From Terasakiella brassicae (GTDB taxonomy: Bacteria; Pseudomonadota; Alphaproteobacteria; Rhodospirillales; Terasakiellaceae): a stretch of 64,000 bases of DNA. The translations under genes and the position numbers were made by a program. Below are positions 1-4,557 of this stretch, piece after piece. Location: the NCBI RefSeq assembly GCF_014641495.1, contig NZ_BMHV01000018.1, forward strand, positions 1 through 64,000. The letters are read 5' to 3'. The stretch's first letter is position 1. Every line of letters begins with the position of its first letter. Under the pieces are notes generated by a model. It saw nothing but the letters and a program-made list of their open reading frames with translations, did not search any database and was not told the DNA's origin.

Positions 1-1
1 G

Positions 2-160
2 CCCGCAATTCGCTTTGATCCGGATATGGCAGATTTTTACAATCGATTGCGCACCAAAGGAAAACCGGGAAAAGTGGCAGTCGTCGCCGTCATCAGAAAG
101 ATGATCGGTATTTTAAACGCAAGAATGAGACAACATTATGCAGCGGCGCTTGACAATTAA
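2..160 (+). pseudogene. IS110-family transposase, C-terminal fragment
   Basis: An open frame of 52 codons enters from the left window edge and ends at TAA 158-160. It encodes the C-terminal segment typical of IS110-type transposases (Transposase_20): FYNRLRTKGKPGKVAVVAV followed by a basic helix (IRKMIGILNARMRQHY). The catalytic DEDD domain would lie left of the window, so whether the whole gene is intact cannot be judged here. The immediate neighbour is a truncated transposase of another family, so this is probably an IS graveyard. Confidence 0.7.
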
Positions 161-172
161 CACCGCTGCTTT

Positions 173-442
173 TTGTTAATTATTTTATTTCTATCAAATC
201 TAATTGCAGCAGGCATTCGAGAAGCCATTGAAAAGGTTGGTGCAACCCTTTTGTTCTTGTCGCCTTATAGCCCGGACTTCAATCCGATAGAGATGGCTTT
301 TTCAAAGATCAAGGCGCTTCTGAGAAAAGCCTGTGCCCGTGAAGTAGAAAAACTTTGGAACGCTATCAGGGATGCTATTGACAGTCTCGAACAAGAAGAA
401 ATCAGAAACTATTTCAAAGCCGCTGGATGTGAACCCGAATAA
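173..442 (+). pseudogene. IS630-family transposase, C-terminal remnant
   Basis: From about position 203 the frame encodes the end of an IS630-type DDE transposase: a strand and helix (AAGIREAIEKVGATLLFLS), the PYSPDFNPIE motif carrying the last catalytic glutamate, and the conserved tail ending NYFKAAGCEP. The first dozen residues (173-202) do not look like the family and probably derive from a junction. The N-terminal two thirds with the two catalytic aspartates are absent, so it cannot be active. GGGATATGCTCTAA at 444-457 resembles an IS630 terminal repeat and may mark the element's right end (inference). Confidence 0.75.
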
Positions 443-490
443 GTGGGATATGCTCTAATTATCTTACCCTGTTTACACAACAAAAAACCC

Positions 491-516
491 CGAGAGCAAA
501 AACTCTCGTTTTTTTT
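491..516 (-). terminator. Hairpin, probable native terminator of tRNA-Gln
   Basis: CGAGAG (491-496), a 6-nt loop and CTCTCG (503-508) form a perfect 6-bp stem. Read on the minus strand the stem is followed by GGG and a run of T, and on the plus strand by eight T, so it could work both ways. It abuts the left copy of the tRNA-Gln end repeat (513-532). Before the cassette inserted, it would have lain directly behind the tRNA's CCA end. Confidence 0.65.
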
Positions 517-532
517 GGCTGGGGCACCAGGA
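513..532. repeat. Left attachment-like direct repeat (tRNA-Gln 3' end copy)
   Basis: Twenty bases here are identical to 1857-1876, which cover the last 17 bases of tRNA-Gln (CCA end and 3' acceptor/T-stem strand) plus three flanking T. Identity stops sharply on both sides (512 versus 1856; 533 versus 1877). This is the pattern left when an element integrates at a tRNA 3' end. Confidence 0.75.
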
Positions 533-818
533 GAATAACTCCTATTGCACTCATAAGTTATTGATTTAAAAAATAAAATAATGTTTTTCAGTCCGCCTGA
601 CTGGTACACGTGTATAGTACACATTGGATTCTTATTAAGTCAAGCTGTGACTGGCTACAGATAATGAGATATATCCCTGAAACACAAAAAAGGCCGCGTT
701 AGCGACCTTTTTCGATAATATCATTGCGAACGGGTATTAGGTACTGTTATCAAATAAGAGTGGTCCTAAGACTTGCTCCGAACGGCTACATTTATAGTAT
801 AGGCAGGGGGAATAGCAT
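533..818. other. Non-coding left part of the tRNA-Gln cassette
   Basis: No credible gene is seen. The stretch holds a GTACAC/GTGTAT/GTACAC palindromic patch near 604-622, an AT-rich segment at 553-587 and the terminator-like hairpin at 691-712. The DNA just before the Abi-like gene probably carries its promoter, but no convincing -35/-10 pair stands out. Confidence 0.4.
691..712 (+). terminator. Terminator-like hairpin
   Basis: AGGCCGC, loop GTTA, GCGACCT followed by TTTTT gives a 7-bp stem with one mismatch and a U-tract on the plus strand. Six A precede it, so it may also act on the minus strand. It insulates the Abi-like gene from transcription entering from the left. Confidence 0.55.
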
Positions 819-968
819 TTGCAACCGCAAAATTAGTTAGATACGGTTGAAGCCATATCAGAGCCAAGACTGAACACATACAGGCGTTTCTTCAATACAC
901 GTACAGACAACGAGACATATGGCCTATACTGCTGGAACGAAACACTAGCGGCTGAACTATTTAAACTT

Positions 969-1742
969 GTGTCCAGTATAGAAATCACTATGCGCAATCG
1001 CTATCACGCTGCATTAAGTAGCCATTATACAGGCATTGCACAAGGTACTCAGCAATCTAATGATTGGTATAATCATATAGGCATTCGCCAAAGGTCTGCA
1101 TTAAACACTATTCAAGAACACAGCCAATATCAATATCCAGATAAAACCATTGCAGCTCTGAACTATGGTTTCTGGATGCACCTCTATGACTGTCGCACTG
1201 ACGTTCATGACAATAATATCAATTGGGATACTATTTTCCCCAATATCATTATCGGACATCGCCAAACAGCACCAAACCCGAATTATTGGAAACGACGAGC
1301 CCACCAAGATATCTTTTTTGGCAGAGTGTATGCAATTAACCAACTAAGAAACAGAATCGCACACCATGAGCCTGTCTGGAAGTTTGGTCCTTTAATGGAA
1401 GAAAAACGTCAACGACGTAACATCGTCATCAATCAGGTACTGCCCGCGCCTAATACAGTCACTGAGATGATGCAACGCCTGAATGACACTCATAATAAAG
1501 GCATCGAACTTTTGTCATGGTTTTCGCCAAGTCGCGCAGATGATTACTTAAGAAGTCAATCCTATATGGAGTTCCAGCGGTTGGCTTCCTTGAAAGCAAT
1601 CGAGGCCTACAAGGAAATGCCTTCCAAAAAATCCTATGCACTCAGTTATTTCAGGAAGCGCATGAACCGCATTATGAAAAATCAGGAAGCTGTACAAATT
1701 TATCAAAACGGTGATTATAAAGGCACGTTCTTCCCATTTTAA
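969..1742 (+). CDS. Abi-like (HEPN-type) protein, N-terminus possibly disrupted
   Basis: This is a candidate abortive-infection or toxin-type protein, 257 codons from the GTG used here. Its key feature is RNRIAHHEPVW (R127 to H132 in this numbering), the R-X4-H motif of HEPN RNases, and the rest resembles the Abi-like family found near mobile elements. The same frame is open upstream to 837 and encodes what looks like the family's conserved N-terminus (SEPRLNTYRRFF, LYCWNETLAAELF, then VSSIEITMRN), but no ATG/GTG/TTG lies between 837 and 966. An in-frame TAG at 834-836 separates it from a possible TTG start at 819. Either translation starts at 969 and yields a shortened protein, a rare start codon is used, or the gene has a nonsense mutation. 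It is the only gene in the tRNA-Gln cassette. Function is inferred from motif and context only. Confidence 0.65.
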   Translation: MSSIEITMRNRYHAALSSHYTGIAQGTQQSNDWYNHIGIRQRSALNTIQEHSQYQYPDKTIAALNYGFWMHLYDCRTDVHDNNINWDTIFPNIIIGHRQTAPNPNYWKRRAHQDIFFGRVYAINQLRNRIAHHEPVWKFGPLMEEKRQRRNIVINQVLPAPNTVTEMMQRLNDTHNKGIELLSWFSPSRADDYLRSQSYMEFQRLASLKAIEAYKEMPSKKSYALSYFRKRMNRIMKNQEAVQIYQNGDYKGTFFPF

Positions 1743-1779
1743 ATTTCACCCTCTTTTCTAGGGAAACCCGTTTAATTAA

Positions 1780-1822
1780 AAAACCCAACCAGTACACACA
1801 GGGCGTACACAGTCGGGTTTTC
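1780..1822 (-). terminator. Terminator shared by Abi-like gene and tRNA-Gln
   Basis: AAACCCAAC at 1781-1789 pairs with GTCGGGTTT at 1812-1820 (one mismatch), with GTAC palindromes in the loop. Plus-strand reading ends in TTTTCT and minus-strand reading in TTTTTTAATT. It can terminate the Abi-like gene from the left and tRNA-Gln from the right, replacing the tRNA's displaced original terminator. Confidence 0.6.
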
Positions 1823-1856
1823 TAAATATTAAGTTATTTATTTTCCAATAACTTTC

Positions 1857-1876
1857 TTTTGGCTGGGGCACCAGGA
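1857..1876. repeat. Right attachment-like direct repeat inside tRNA-Gln
   Basis: This is the second copy of the 20-bp repeat at 513-532. It overlaps the 3' end of tRNA-Gln including CCA, so the tRNA gene stays intact after insertion, as in classical tRNA-targeted integration. Confidence 0.75.
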
Positions 1877-1934
1877 TTCGAACCTGGGGATGACGATACC
1901 AAAAACCGTTGCCTTACCGCTTGGCGATGCCCCA
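1860..1934 (-). tRNA. tRNA-Gln (anticodon TTG)
   Basis: The minus strand reads TGGGGCATCGCCAAGCGGTA at its 5' end and has the anticodon loop TTTTTGG with anticodon TTG, the T-arm GGTTCGAATCC and the acceptor strand TGCCCCA-G with encoded CCA. The length of 75 nt and the sequence closely follow the bacterial glutamine tRNA. It is the insertion target of the adjacent cassette. ispE ends 65 bp upstream of its 5' end on the same strand. Confidence 0.97.
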
Positions 1935-1999
1935 TCTGTGTGGTGGCGCGGAACATACGACCAAATTTTAGAAAGTGCAAGAGGGTAATTGAAAAAAAA

Positions 2000-2854
2000 T
2001 TAAATTATTTTTCCACAGGAAACCCACCATTTCGGATAGCATTTTTGCAATGCTTTCTCAGCAGCTTGCGCATCCTTTTCGCATTCAAACAAACCAAAGC
2101 AGGTTGCCCCACTGCCCGACATACGGGTCAATGCGCACTCGGGCTGAACAGATAAAGCCTGCAAGACATTTGCAATTTCAGGCGCAATCTGAACCGCAGG
2201 TGCCATCAGATCGTTTGTACGTTCTTTTAAGGCCTTGATAAAGGTCGCAAACGTATATTCCCCACCCATCGGCGCCGCATCCGTAAACCCGCCTGTGCGG
2301 GCCTTAAACACAGATGGTGTGGATAGCGCAATCATCGGGTTAGCCAAAACCATCCAGCAGTCCGGTATAGGGGGAAGAGGTGTTATCACTTCACCGATCC
2401 CGCCGACATGATTGGCATGGGCTTTCATACAGATCGGAACGTCCGCCCCCAAGGACAGGGCCAATTCTTCCAATCCCAATGGGTCGGGAAACACCTGCCA
2501 TAACTGACAAAGCGCCTTCAACGTGGCGGCCGCATCACCGGAGCCACCACCAATACCGGCAGCCACCGGCAAACGTTTATCCAGCGTAATCTGCGCCCCC
2601 AAATCGGTCTTGCAGAGTTTTTGCAGCCCCAAAGCCGCTTTCATCACCAGATTATCTGGACCCGACACATCAATATAAGACGCCATCGGGCCAACGACAT
2701 CCAATGACAAACGGTCTGCGGCTTCCACATGTAACAGATCACCCGTCTGGGCAAACACGATCAGGCTATCGAGTTCGTGGTAACCGTTTTCGCGCCGTCC
2801 ACATACATGAAGGTATAAATTTACCTTTGCATAGGCCTGTTGCGTAATGCTCAT
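2000..2854 (-). CDS. ispE: 4-diphosphocytidyl-2-C-methyl-D-erythritol kinase
   Basis: IspE phosphorylates CDP-methylerythritol with ATP in the non-mevalonate isoprenoid pathway (cytosol). The 284-residue protein starts with QQAYAKVNLYLHVCGRRENGYHELDSL, the GHMP-kinase N-terminal signature. It has the glycine-rich ATP loop PVAAGIGGGSGDAAATL and a C-terminal GSGATCFGLF motif, in the normal order and at normal length. The chosen ATG at 2852-2854 overlaps the stop of the upstream TPR gene as ATGA, so the two are probably translationally coupled. An open frame continues 28 codons further upstream, but it lies inside the TPR gene and lacks family similarity. Confidence 0.95.
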   Translation of the reverse strand: MSITQQAYAKVNLYLHVCGRRENGYHELDSLIVFAQTGDLLHVEAADRLSLDVVGPMASYIDVSGPDNLVMKAALGLQKLCKTDLGAQITLDKRLPVAAGIGGGSGDAAATLKALCQLWQVFPDPLGLEELALSLGADVPICMKAHANHVGGIGEVITPLPPIPDCWMVLANPMIALSTPSVFKARTGGFTDAAPMGGEYTFATFIKALKERTNDLMAPAVQIAPEIANVLQALSVQPECALTRMSGSGATCFGLFECEKDAQAAEKALQKCYPKWWVSCGKII

Positions 2855-4557
2855 TCTGTCTCGAGACCATTTGCAATTTTTTGTTCGATTGTTTCCAGAA
2901 CATCCGGTGTTGGGTTGAGACTTTTTGCCCGATACCATTGGAAACGGGCCTCGCGGTTGCGCCCAACTTTCCAGTAAGCATCGCCAAGGTGATCGTTAAT
3001 CACCGGATCACTGGGTTGCAATTCAACAGCACGTTCCAGATGAGGAACGGACTTTTCATATTGTCCCAGTCGATAAAGCACCCAGCCGAGGCTATCAACG
3101 ATATATCCATCACGCGGGCGTTGGGCAACGGCTTCTTCGATCATTGCTTGCGCACGTTCAAGGTGACGACCGTTTTCAATCCATGAATAGCCCAGGTAAT
3201 TCAAAACAAACGGCTGGTTCGGTTCCAGTTCCAATGCTTTTAAAAATAAAGGTTCCGCCTCATCCCAACGTTTCAGACGTTCCAGCGAAATGGCGCGCGA
3301 ATAAAACAAATTCCAATGATGGGCCGCAACCTCTTGACCAATTAAATCGATTGCCTGCCCATAGATTTTTTCCGCTTTTTCAAATTTTTCATGGTGACGC
3401 AAAACATCGCCCAATGTCACCAGAACTTCCAGACGATCGGGATGTTGTGCCACCATCTCTTCCAAAATGGCAATGGCCCCGTCTTGATCGCCCAGATCAT
3501 CTAGGTTCAGCGCCATACGCAAACGCGCAGACCATGAAAACGGGTTTTTCTTATCAATCGTCGCATAGATTTTATTGGCATCGGCAAAACGGCGATCACT
3601 TTCCAGAATTTCTGCCACCAAAATACGGGCAATCGGGAATTTTGGTTTCACATGCAGGGTCATATGGCCCATGATCAAGCCAACTTGCCGGGTACTGTGC
3701 GAACGCAGGGAAGAAGCCAGACCGAATAAAGCCTCCGCCAAGCCGTCTTTGACCGTAATTGCCGGTGTTTTCGCCAACATGCCGCTATTGAGTTCGTCCA
3801 ACAAAGCCTGAATATAAAGGGAATCGGGGTGCGCCAAGAAATACTGTCCATAGACAGCTTGCGCATCATTCACGCGATTCTGTTTGACCAGCAAGGCGGC
3901 ATAAAGTTCCGCCAGACGCAGGGACATACCGTTTTCACCCTGTGCCGCCAATTTATAATGTTTTTCTGCGTTCCCAACATCGCCTTTAAAATCGTACAAT
4001 AAACCGGTGTGCAAATGATAAAGTGCTTCCAGCCCTTTTTCTTTTTGCATCGGGGCAATCGCCTTCAACGCCGCATCCACCCCATCGGTCGCTGCGATTA
4101 ACCATGTCTGGATTAACGGTTTCACATAGGCACCAAGGCCGCTGCCCGGTATGTCATCAACCTTGGTGCGTGCCGCCGCCATATCACCCGCGACCACATC
4201 TTCCATGGCCAAAACCAGTTTCGCCATCAGATTTTCGTTATTAATCTCACCTGCAATCTTCGCCGCCTGTTCAAAACGGCCTTCGCTGGCATAAATGGCA
4301 AATAATTGGCGTTTCAGGTTATCGTCCAATTCAGTGGGGAAATCTTTCGATTCATGCACAGTACTTAAAAAATCGGCTGCATTCTCCATATCACGATGGC
4401 GTACCGCATATTGCCCCACAAGATAATTTGACAAGGAGGACTCACCCGGTTTTAACGGAGGCATTTGCGGTTCACTGGCCGTTGTGCAACCGGTAATCAA
4501 AGCCGGGGCACAAATTGTTGCGCAGATGAGGAGGTTCTTCAAACTAAATACAGACAC
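2851..4557 (-). CDS. TPR-repeat lipoprotein
   Basis: A predicted outer-membrane or periplasmic lipoprotein of 568 residues. The GTG start at 4557 is preceded by AAGGA and gives a clean lipoprotein signal, with hydrophobic core LLICATICAPA and lipobox LITGC (Cys24). A TTG eight codons upstream is the alternative. The mature part is almost entirely tetratricopeptide repeats, with well-formed copies in the last 200 residues (e.g. PFVLNYLGYSWIENG, AYWKVGRNREARFQW). Such proteins usually scaffold envelope complexes, but no specific partner can be named. It lies upstream of ispE with a 4-bp overlap, a pairing I recall from other alphaproteobacteria. Confidence 0.85.
   Translation of the reverse strand: MSVFSLKNLLICATICAPALITGCTTASEPQMPPLKPGESSLSNYLVGQYAVRHRDMENAADFLSTVHESKDFPTELDDNLKRQLFAIYASEGRFEQAAKIAGEINNENLMAKLVLAMEDVVAGDMAAARTKVDDIPGSGLGAYVKPLIQTWLIAATDGVDAALKAIAPMQKEKGLEALYHLHTGLLYDFKGDVGNAEKHYKLAAQGENGMSLRLAELYAALLVKQNRVNDAQAVYGQYFLAHPDSLYIQALLDELNSGMLAKTPAITVKDGLAEALFGLASSLRSHSTRQVGLIMGHMTLHVKPKFPIARILVAEILESDRRFADANKIYATIDKKNPFSWSARLRMALNLDDLGDQDGAIAILEEMVAQHPDRLEVLVTLGDVLRHHEKFEKAEKIYGQAIDLIGQEVAAHHWNLFYSRAISLERLKRWDEAEPLFLKALELEPNQPFVLNYLGYSWIENGRHLERAQAMIEEAVAQRPRDGYIVDSLGWVLYRLGQYEKSVPHLERAVELQPSDPVINDHLGDAYWKVGRNREARFQWYRAKSLNPTPDVLETIEQKIANGLETE

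What the first reader, a model, noticed from the sequence alone, without database searches (positions are those of the whole stretch)
513..1876. 1.34 kb integrase-less cassette at the 3' end of tRNA-Gln carrying one Abi-like gene
Seen: a 20-bp exact direct repeat (513-532, 1857-1876) whose right copy is the tRNA-Gln 3' end; one HEPN-motif gene and two hairpins between. Known: tyrosine-recombinase islands duplicate tRNA 3' ends. Inferred: a minimal defence cassette moved in trans, or the residue of a larger island. A single putative defence gene between att-like repeats with no recombinase is unusual and could represent a class of very small mobile defence elements.
Basis: partly seen in the sequence, partly recalled or inferred. 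Interest (0 to 1): 0.75.

Follow-up and report, generated by a model that had tools for sequence, protein, structure and literature searches.

The report
Decayed mini-island carrying a toxin-RNA pair
A 1.3-kb piece of DNA sits at the end of a transfer-RNA gene with both ends of a mobile island but no enzyme to move it; it carries a phage-defence toxin gene that looks broken and, not noticed at first, a small structured RNA that probably kept that toxin in check.

Summary
In detail: a 20-bp repeat (513-532, 1857-1876), unique in the genome, whose right copy is the tRNA-Gln 3' end, bounds 1.34 kb without integrase. Three of five congeners have an empty site; two have integrase genes there. Both cassette ends resemble island ends of one congener (G002; its two ends lie on separate contigs). 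So this is a CIME-like, integrase-less remnant. The cargo is more than one gene: an AbiF-like (Abi_2, HEPN) toxin plus a divergent, covariation-supported ncRNA (720-789, minus), found in 28 of 33 closer homologue loci and above no Rfam threshold where tested. By analogy with AbiF-RCd22 it is probably the RNA antitoxin. But the toxin frame has an amber stop at codon 6, and 3 of 13 ncRNA pairs are lost. Integrases in this genome are only distant relatives, and exact distal core copies occur in 2 of 317 order and 1 of 385 class genomes, this genome included. A live, trans-mobile defence cassette, or a class of them, is not supported. The lasting interest is the uncatalogued ncRNA partner of proteobacterial AbiF-type toxins.

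The parts
491..508 (-). terminator-like hairpin that followed tRNA-Gln before insertion; now just outside the left repeat
   Evidence: in G001/G004/G005 tRNA-Gln is directly followed by such a hairpin
513..532 (+). left core repeat (copy of the tRNA-Gln 3' end, distal att core)
554..643 (+). left element end; TAAGTTATTGAT and paired GTACAC sites at 604-609 and 617-622 (arm-type sites, inferred)
   Evidence: local alignment of 533-660 with a G002 island left end scores 45, best of 1000 shuffles 26
686..712 (.). hairpin with an A-run before and a T-run after; proposed 3' terminator of the ncRNA on the minus strand
   Evidence: fold (-18.0 kcal/mol on the minus strand); a hairpin at the same position in homologues
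720..789 (-). structured ncRNA, putative AbiF-type RNA antitoxin, divergent from abi; 3 of 13 consensus pairs lost
   Evidence: covariance model R1, 19.5 bits, E 0.0013 over 64 kb with filters off, next best 9.2 bits; missed with default filters and by the fast genome search
796..824 (-). promoter-like TTGCAA-17-TATACT for the ncRNA; its -35 box covers the abi start codon
   Evidence: promoter-like sites in 1-2100 are not clearly in excess of shuffles (7 vs 4.7 +/- 2.2)
819..1742 (+). abiF-like toxin gene (Abi_2/HEPN): TTG start at 819, amber TAG at 834-836, open frame 837-1742; probable pseudogene
1779..1838 (-). right (integrase-side) element end: terminator-like stem 1783-1823 with GTACAC sites 1792-1797 and 1805-1810
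   Evidence: 1743-1856 scores 36 vs G002 contig C26 end (max of 1000 shuffles 27), 30 vs G002 contig C46 end (max 28); not significant vs G003 (18; 218 of 1000 as high)
1857..1876 (+). right core repeat = tRNA-Gln 3' end plus 3 nt
1860..1934 (-). tRNA-Gln (TTG), intact integration target

Best explanation
The cassette is the shrunken remnant of a tRNA-Gln-specific integrative element. A tyrosine integrase, probably of the DUF6538 type seen at this site in congeners, inserted an element at the tRNA 3' end, leaving a core repeat on each side (shown: repeats, empty sites, integrase genes at the same site in congeners; the event itself is inferred). The integrase and any transfer genes were later lost while both att ends stayed (shown: both ends resemble island ends; order of loss inferred). 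What is left is a two-part module: an AbiF-like HEPN RNase toxin and a divergent structured RNA that by analogy binds and neutralises it (RNA and linkage shown by covariation in homologues; neutralisation inferred from AbiF-RCd22 and PbAbiF). Such a module could have given phage defence and, as a toxin-antitoxin pair, selected against loss of the element. Today it is probably inert: the toxin has an amber codon at position 6 and the RNA has lost pairs that do not vary in 22 relatives.
For: Unique repeat; empty sites in 3 of 5 congeners and integrase genes beside tRNA-Gln in 2 of 5; end homology beyond shuffles, with negative controls outside and inside. No credible integrase remnant. Abi_2 in Pfam; PD-T4-5 in PADLOC, E 1.3e-17; fold match to PbAbiF-ncRNA 8vz6, Z 12.3 over 201 residues, next 5.0 (Foldseek E 3.7e-3). 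ncRNA: 96.5% of cells paired vs 83.0 +/- 1.3 shuffled and 31.8-38.5% when slid; 8 of 13 pairs with double-sided changes (5 of 500 shuffles as high), covariation score 0 of 500; present in 28 of 33 closer homologue loci; in the window first of 64 kb. Amber: near homologues start [M/V]QPxNIxxT...ISxxRL, the window reads TTG-QPQN-TAG-LDTVEAISEPRL in the same register. TAG ends 3 of 40 ATG ORFs of 250 aa or more in the window.
Against: The G002 left end (contig C46) and the integrase end (contig C26) are on separate contigs, so that they bound one element is inferred. The right end does not align significantly with the G003 island. Only the own genome of 6 in the genus carries this abi gene, so no intact parent island is seen. 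The window ncRNA is missed by the model with default filters and in the whole-genome search, and a hit of 18.9 bits lies some 8 kb from abi in L089. 'Further pair types' reached the observed value in 37 of 500 shuffles. 46 of 56 conserved columns are kept, so the toxin was functional until recently, or is still made in some way. The amber could be an assembly error; reads were not available.
Confidence: 0.75

Rival explanations
1. A live minimal element: both att ends with arm sites are kept so that a related integrase arriving on another island excises and inserts it in trans, carrying a working AbiF-RNA defence module.
For: Both ends, including paired GTACAC sites, are retained; two congeners hold integrase genes at the same site.
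Against: Amber codon in the toxin; integrases of the own genome are only distant relatives of the G002 integrase; no second copy in the own genome; no exact distal core copy outside G000 and G002 in 317 order genomes.
Confidence: 0.1
2. The left repeat is an old tRNA 3'-end fragment and the abi gene arrived independently, for instance by IS activity; no integrase was involved.
For: IS fragments lie at 1-458; some homologues have an IS transposase gene nearby or sit on a small plasmid.
Against: Both ends inside the repeats resemble island ends, while the outside flank and a piece of cargo do not; the IS630-like remnant ends at 457-458, outside the repeat.
Confidence: 0.05
3. The toxin is still made, by readthrough of the amber codon or from an unusual start, so the module is functional.
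For: 301 open codons follow the stop; 46 of 56 conserved columns kept; confident fold (pLDDT 90.6).
Against: The next common start, GTG at 969, removes 44 residues and with them half of helix 24-63; two ncRNA pairs that never vary in 22 relatives are also broken.
Confidence: 0.1

Closest known systems
CIME (cis-mobilizable element; definition in PMC5704250, passages seen)
   Same: lost integration and transfer genes, keeps attL and attR
   Different: very small (1.34 kb, one recognised protein gene); no integrase-bearing element next to it in the DNA available
Dehalococcoides ssrA islands without integration modules (15 reported, PMC3146451, passage seen)
   Same: att-bounded islands without an integration module at an RNA gene
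   Different: those hold 38 rdhA and other genes in total; suggested there to move with adjacent islands
AbiF-RCd22 of Clostridioides difficile (PMC12373285; abstract, passages, section 6 and part 1 of section 13 seen)
   Same: Abi_2 HEPN toxin next to a roughly 100-nt structured RNA with its own terminator
   Different: there the RNA is co-transcribed with the toxin and holds two RF03085 motifs; here it is divergent, one hairpin, no RF03085 match, with a promoter-like site over the toxin start codon
PbAbiF with its ncRNA, PDB 8vz6
   Same: closest solved fold
   Different: 15% identity; RNA structures not compared
PD-T4-5 (PMC9519451, passages seen)
   Same: best PADLOC family; plasmid-borne distant AbiF/D relative that gives abortive infection
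   Different: the passages seen name no ncRNA for it; the window gene has an amber codon

Membership tests
CIME | no integrase or recombinase gene | tested here: met
   ORFs of 533-1856 and search with two congener integrases
CIME | no transfer or mobilization genes | tested here: met
   only one recognised protein gene in 533-1856
CIME | bounded by attL and attR of an integrative element family | tested here: met
   repeat pair and end homology to island ends at tRNA-Gln in G002, whose two ends are on separate contigs
CIME | derived by deletion from an ICE or IME | tested here: inconclusive
   same-site islands in congeners, but this cargo in none of the 5 other genomes
CIME | att sites functional, moved by accretion with a neighbour | not testable with these tools
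   needs an excision assay
AbiF / Abi_2 toxin | Abi_2 domain above curated cut-off | tested here: met
   36.8 bits vs 25.6
AbiF / Abi_2 toxin | HEPN RxxxxH motif | tested here: met
   RNRIAH; R171 nearly invariant and H176 invariant in 35 sequences
AbiF / Abi_2 toxin | AbiF fold | tested here: met
   8vz6 Z 12.3, 201 aligned, 3.4 A; next 5.0; a helical protein, so Z alone is modest
AbiF / Abi_2 toxin | intact reading frame | tested here: not met
   amber at codon 6
abiF RNA, RF03085 | match to the Rfam model | tested here: not met
   no RF03085 match in window 1-2200 (E up to 5) nor in 7 homologue loci (L048, L049, L055, L057, L066, L073, L078; E up to 10)
type III-like RNA toxin-antitoxin | structured RNA linked to the toxin | tested here: met
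   for homologues; for the window
type III-like RNA toxin-antitoxin | RNA neutralises the toxin by binding it | not testable with these tools
   needs bench work
PD-T4-5 | PADLOC model match and anti-phage activity | tested here: inconclusive
   E 1.3e-17, 62 bits, no cut-off given; activity not testable

The most novel reading that the evidence does not exclude
The divergent hairpin RNA (GUANGCRCUUGG ... CCAAG-N-YGCAA, then a terminator), with a promoter-like site over the start codon of the toxin, is an undescribed family of RNA antitoxins for AbiF-type toxins in Pseudomonadota. Because RNA and toxin genes read away from each other, polymerase or a repressor at the shared site could set the antitoxin-to-toxin ratio without the readthrough terminator used by AbiF-RCd22. 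This cassette is a natural fossil in which both partners decayed.
Probability: 0.4. Interest if true: 0.65.

Novelty: new variant of a known kind. Interest (0 to 1): 0.45.

Why it matters
The element shows how far an integrated island can shrink while both attachment ends survive, and what stays last: here a toxin-RNA pair. More useful is the RNA. AbiF-type toxins are proposed ancestors of Cas13 (PMC12165695 passages; PMC12737573 passages). A second, differently arranged RNA partner in Pseudomonadota would help to test how antitoxin RNAs became guide RNAs, and would add a missing half to Abi_2 genes annotated as single genes.

Tried and rejected
Rejected readings. (1) Repeat as dispersed tRNA-like sequence: unique in genome. 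(2) Integrase remnant inside the cassette: none credible. (3) The same ends in viral contigs: pattern with arms 0 matches; core alone 3 contigs, two of them at tRNA-Gln genes, one with no tRNA there and not examined further. (4) Distal end of the G003 island: the only other core-like sites with up to 2 mismatches in G003 are about 284 kb and 1.47 Mb away; no paired GTACAC in the 40 kb further left; one weak match in L127 looked like chance on inspection. (5) A home-made integrase profile hit nothing in the 79 homologue loci, but it knows only this integrase subfamily, so no claim is made about their integrases. (6) Close relatives of the toxin: viral contigs none; phage records 3, all below 60% identity. 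(7) Solved structures by sequence: best E 0.6. (8) Prevalence of the ncRNA model in genomes other than the own one was not run.

Negative results told: R1 with default filters misses the window, and the whole-genome search gave only 12.6 bits elsewhere. Loci without the RNA at E 0.01: L044, L045, L046, L068, L070 (5 of 33). Among the 52 more distant loci L074-L125 the only hit at E 1 is in L089, some 8 kb from abi; so 28 of all 85 homologue loci have the RNA. Sub-threshold Rfam leader matches overlap the terminator hairpin in the window, L049 and L073. Rows left out: L058 was left out of A4 for an insertion; L042, L057, L066, L071 and L072 were not used for it; A2 holds 34 of the 79 homologue loci plus the window. 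The GTACAC pattern was chosen after seeing the ends, and picks the best promoter-like pair in each locus. The order and class searches accept exact cores only; the class set is a sample and lacks G002. Literature: searches; Zilberzwige-Tal et al. did not turn up in them and is known only through PMC12373285 and PMC12737573, so an earlier description of this RNA cannot be excluded. The confidence of the best explanation was lowered from 0.78 to 0.75 on re-checking, because the two G002 ends lie on separate contigs.

Full report
Observation. The 20-bp repeat is real, at the stated coordinates, absent from shuffles and present only twice in the 3,635,693-bp assembly even with three mismatches. 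The right copy is the last 17 nt of tRNA-Gln plus three T. The window begins at a contig end. The first 458 bases are mostly IS debris: a DDE_3 transposase fragment whose end matches three other copies in the genome.

Site history. The genus has six genomes in the collection. In G001, G004 and G005 tRNA-Gln is followed at once by a terminator-like hairpin, read by eye; in G005 a further 16 nt match the DNA just left of the left repeat. In G002 and G003 the tRNA is followed by about 100 bp and then by a 555-557 aa integrase with DUF6538 and Phage_integrase domains; the G003 protein scores 26.8 bits against a 27.1 cut-off for the latter. The two are 29% identical. So 3 of 6 genomes have the site occupied.

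Ends. G002 contig C46 holds a second exact core copy. Right of it, 559-690 aligns with window 533-660 (score 45; best of 1000 dinucleotide shuffles 26). The window's right end aligns with the integrase-side ends on G002 contigs C26 and C46 (36 vs a shuffle maximum of 27; 30 vs 28) but not significantly with G003 (18; 218 of 1000 shuffles as high). The DNA outside the left repeat and a piece of cargo give no match (978 and 849 of 1000). Paired GTACAC sites recur at both window ends and at G002 ends; they look like integrase arm sites (inference; the pattern was chosen after the fact). That the C46 left end and the C26 integrase end bound one element is inferred, since the contigs are separate. 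The C46 side carries type I restriction-modification genes and a NikA-like protein below its cut-off, so the element is possibly mobilizable and has other defence cargo. Left of the C46 core is another integrase-side end, 86% identical over 238 columns to that of C26, apparently cut by a transposase gene (by eye): tandem accretion.

Is it a class? Exact distal copies of the core (not followed by T as in the tRNA) were found in 2 of 317 order genomes (G000, G002) and in 1 of 385 sampled class genomes (own). The core-plus-arm pattern gave the same 2 of 317. Of 85 loci with abi homologues (79, 6 plasmid stretches) none is bracketed by a tRNA 3'-end repeat, but only 4 of the 85 hold a tRNA and many are short. 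The abi gene is in 1 of 6 genomes of the genus, the own one. The own genome has other tyrosine recombinases, matching the G002 integrase at 26-36% identity in the better hits. Hence one remnant, not a class, on present evidence.

The protein. The open frame 837-1742 is Abi_2, closest in PADLOC to PD-T4-5. All 680 plasmid records with a homologue are below 60% identity, the best listed at 37-38%. AlphaFold gives pLDDT 90.6, and the best solved structure is PbAbiF bound to its ncRNA, 8vz6 (Foldseek E 3.7e-3; Z 12.3, 201 residues, next 5.0). The HEPN motif RNRIAH is intact. Near homologues begin [M/V]QPxNIxxT...ISxxRL (for example L048, L049, L054, L055, L067, L073). The window reads TTG QPQN TAG LDTVEAISEPRL in exact register, so codon 6 is a stop. 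TAG ends 3 of 40 ATG ORFs of 250 aa or more in the window. 46 of 56 columns conserved in at least 19 of 20 homologues are kept, so the break looks recent.

The RNA. Upstream of abi in many homologues lies a conserved unit on the opposite strand. Twenty-two copies (A4) give 13 pairs, 8 with double-sided changes (5 of 500 shuffles as high), 96.5% of cells paired (shuffled 83.0 +/- 1.3; slid 31.8-38.5%), covariation score 0.449 (shuffled 0.187; 0 of 500); further pair types 15 (37 of 500 as high). G-U pairs appear on this strand. Model R1 hits 28 of the 33 loci L041-L073 at E 0.01, 22 of them in training and 6 held out (L042, L057, L058, L066, L071, L072; L042 is much like the training locus L047, and L071 is weak at 23.3 bits). 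In L057 and L066 the RNA lies behind abi, still antiparallel, so linkage survives rearrangement. It is missing in L044-L046, L068 and L070 and beside all 52 remote loci L074-L125. In the window R1 finds 720-789 minus at 19.5 bits: E 2.8e-5 in 1.4 kb, E 0.0013 in 64 kb with filters off, next best 9.2. With default filters it is missed, as in the genome search. A hit of 18.9 bits far from abi in L089 shows that the score alone is not decisive; position, promoter-like TTGCAA-17-TATACT over the start codon and terminator add to it. Three of 13 pairs are non-standard, two of which never vary in the 22 relatives. No Rfam family reaches its gathering score in window 1-2200 other than tRNA, nor in the seven homologue loci scanned.

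Mechanism. Shown: att-bounded remnant; toxin family; conserved linked RNA; stop codon. Inferred: the RNA binds and silences the toxin, as RCd22 does for AbiFCd (PMC12373285); loss or phage takeover would free an RNase that stops growth; the pair would also penalise loss of the element. Here the toxin is probably dead, which would leave the RNA free to decay.

Verdict. The mobile-element part is a CIME-like remnant (PMC5704250; compare PMC3146451): a known kind, very small. The RNA partner is the new variant. I score the whole 0.45.

Noticed in passing
1-458: IS debris outside the cassette: a fragment at the contig end with no Pfam match (IS110-like by recall) and a DDE_3 (IS630-like) remnant ending at 457-458.
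   Followed up: partly
L128 (G002:C46) 1-560 and L014: Tandem islands at tRNA-Gln in a congener: a second integrase-side end, 86% identical to the first, apparently cut by a transposase gene; type I R-M genes follow the core.
   Followed up: partly
L011 5432-5918 minus: Two fragments of a second, degraded integrase of the same family inside the G003 island.
   Followed up: no
L129 (G000:C21) 2536-4496: Integrase next to tRNA-Met in the own genome, with an inverted integrase N-terminal fragment just behind it near the contig end.
   Followed up: no
L044 (NZ_CP031816.1) and hit H13 (NC_020212.1): Abi homologues on 4.1-kb and 3.2-kb plasmids of Klebsiella and Serratia: the same family on tiny replicons; L044 has no R1 hit, H13 was not examined.
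   Followed up: partly
L058 9855-9950 and 12121-12202: Two copies of the ncRNA in one locus, possibly two toxin-RNA pairs side by side.
   Followed up: no
L072 88-155: The ncRNA sits before an abi gene that matches only query residues 109-300; its N-terminal part may be missing.
   Followed up: no
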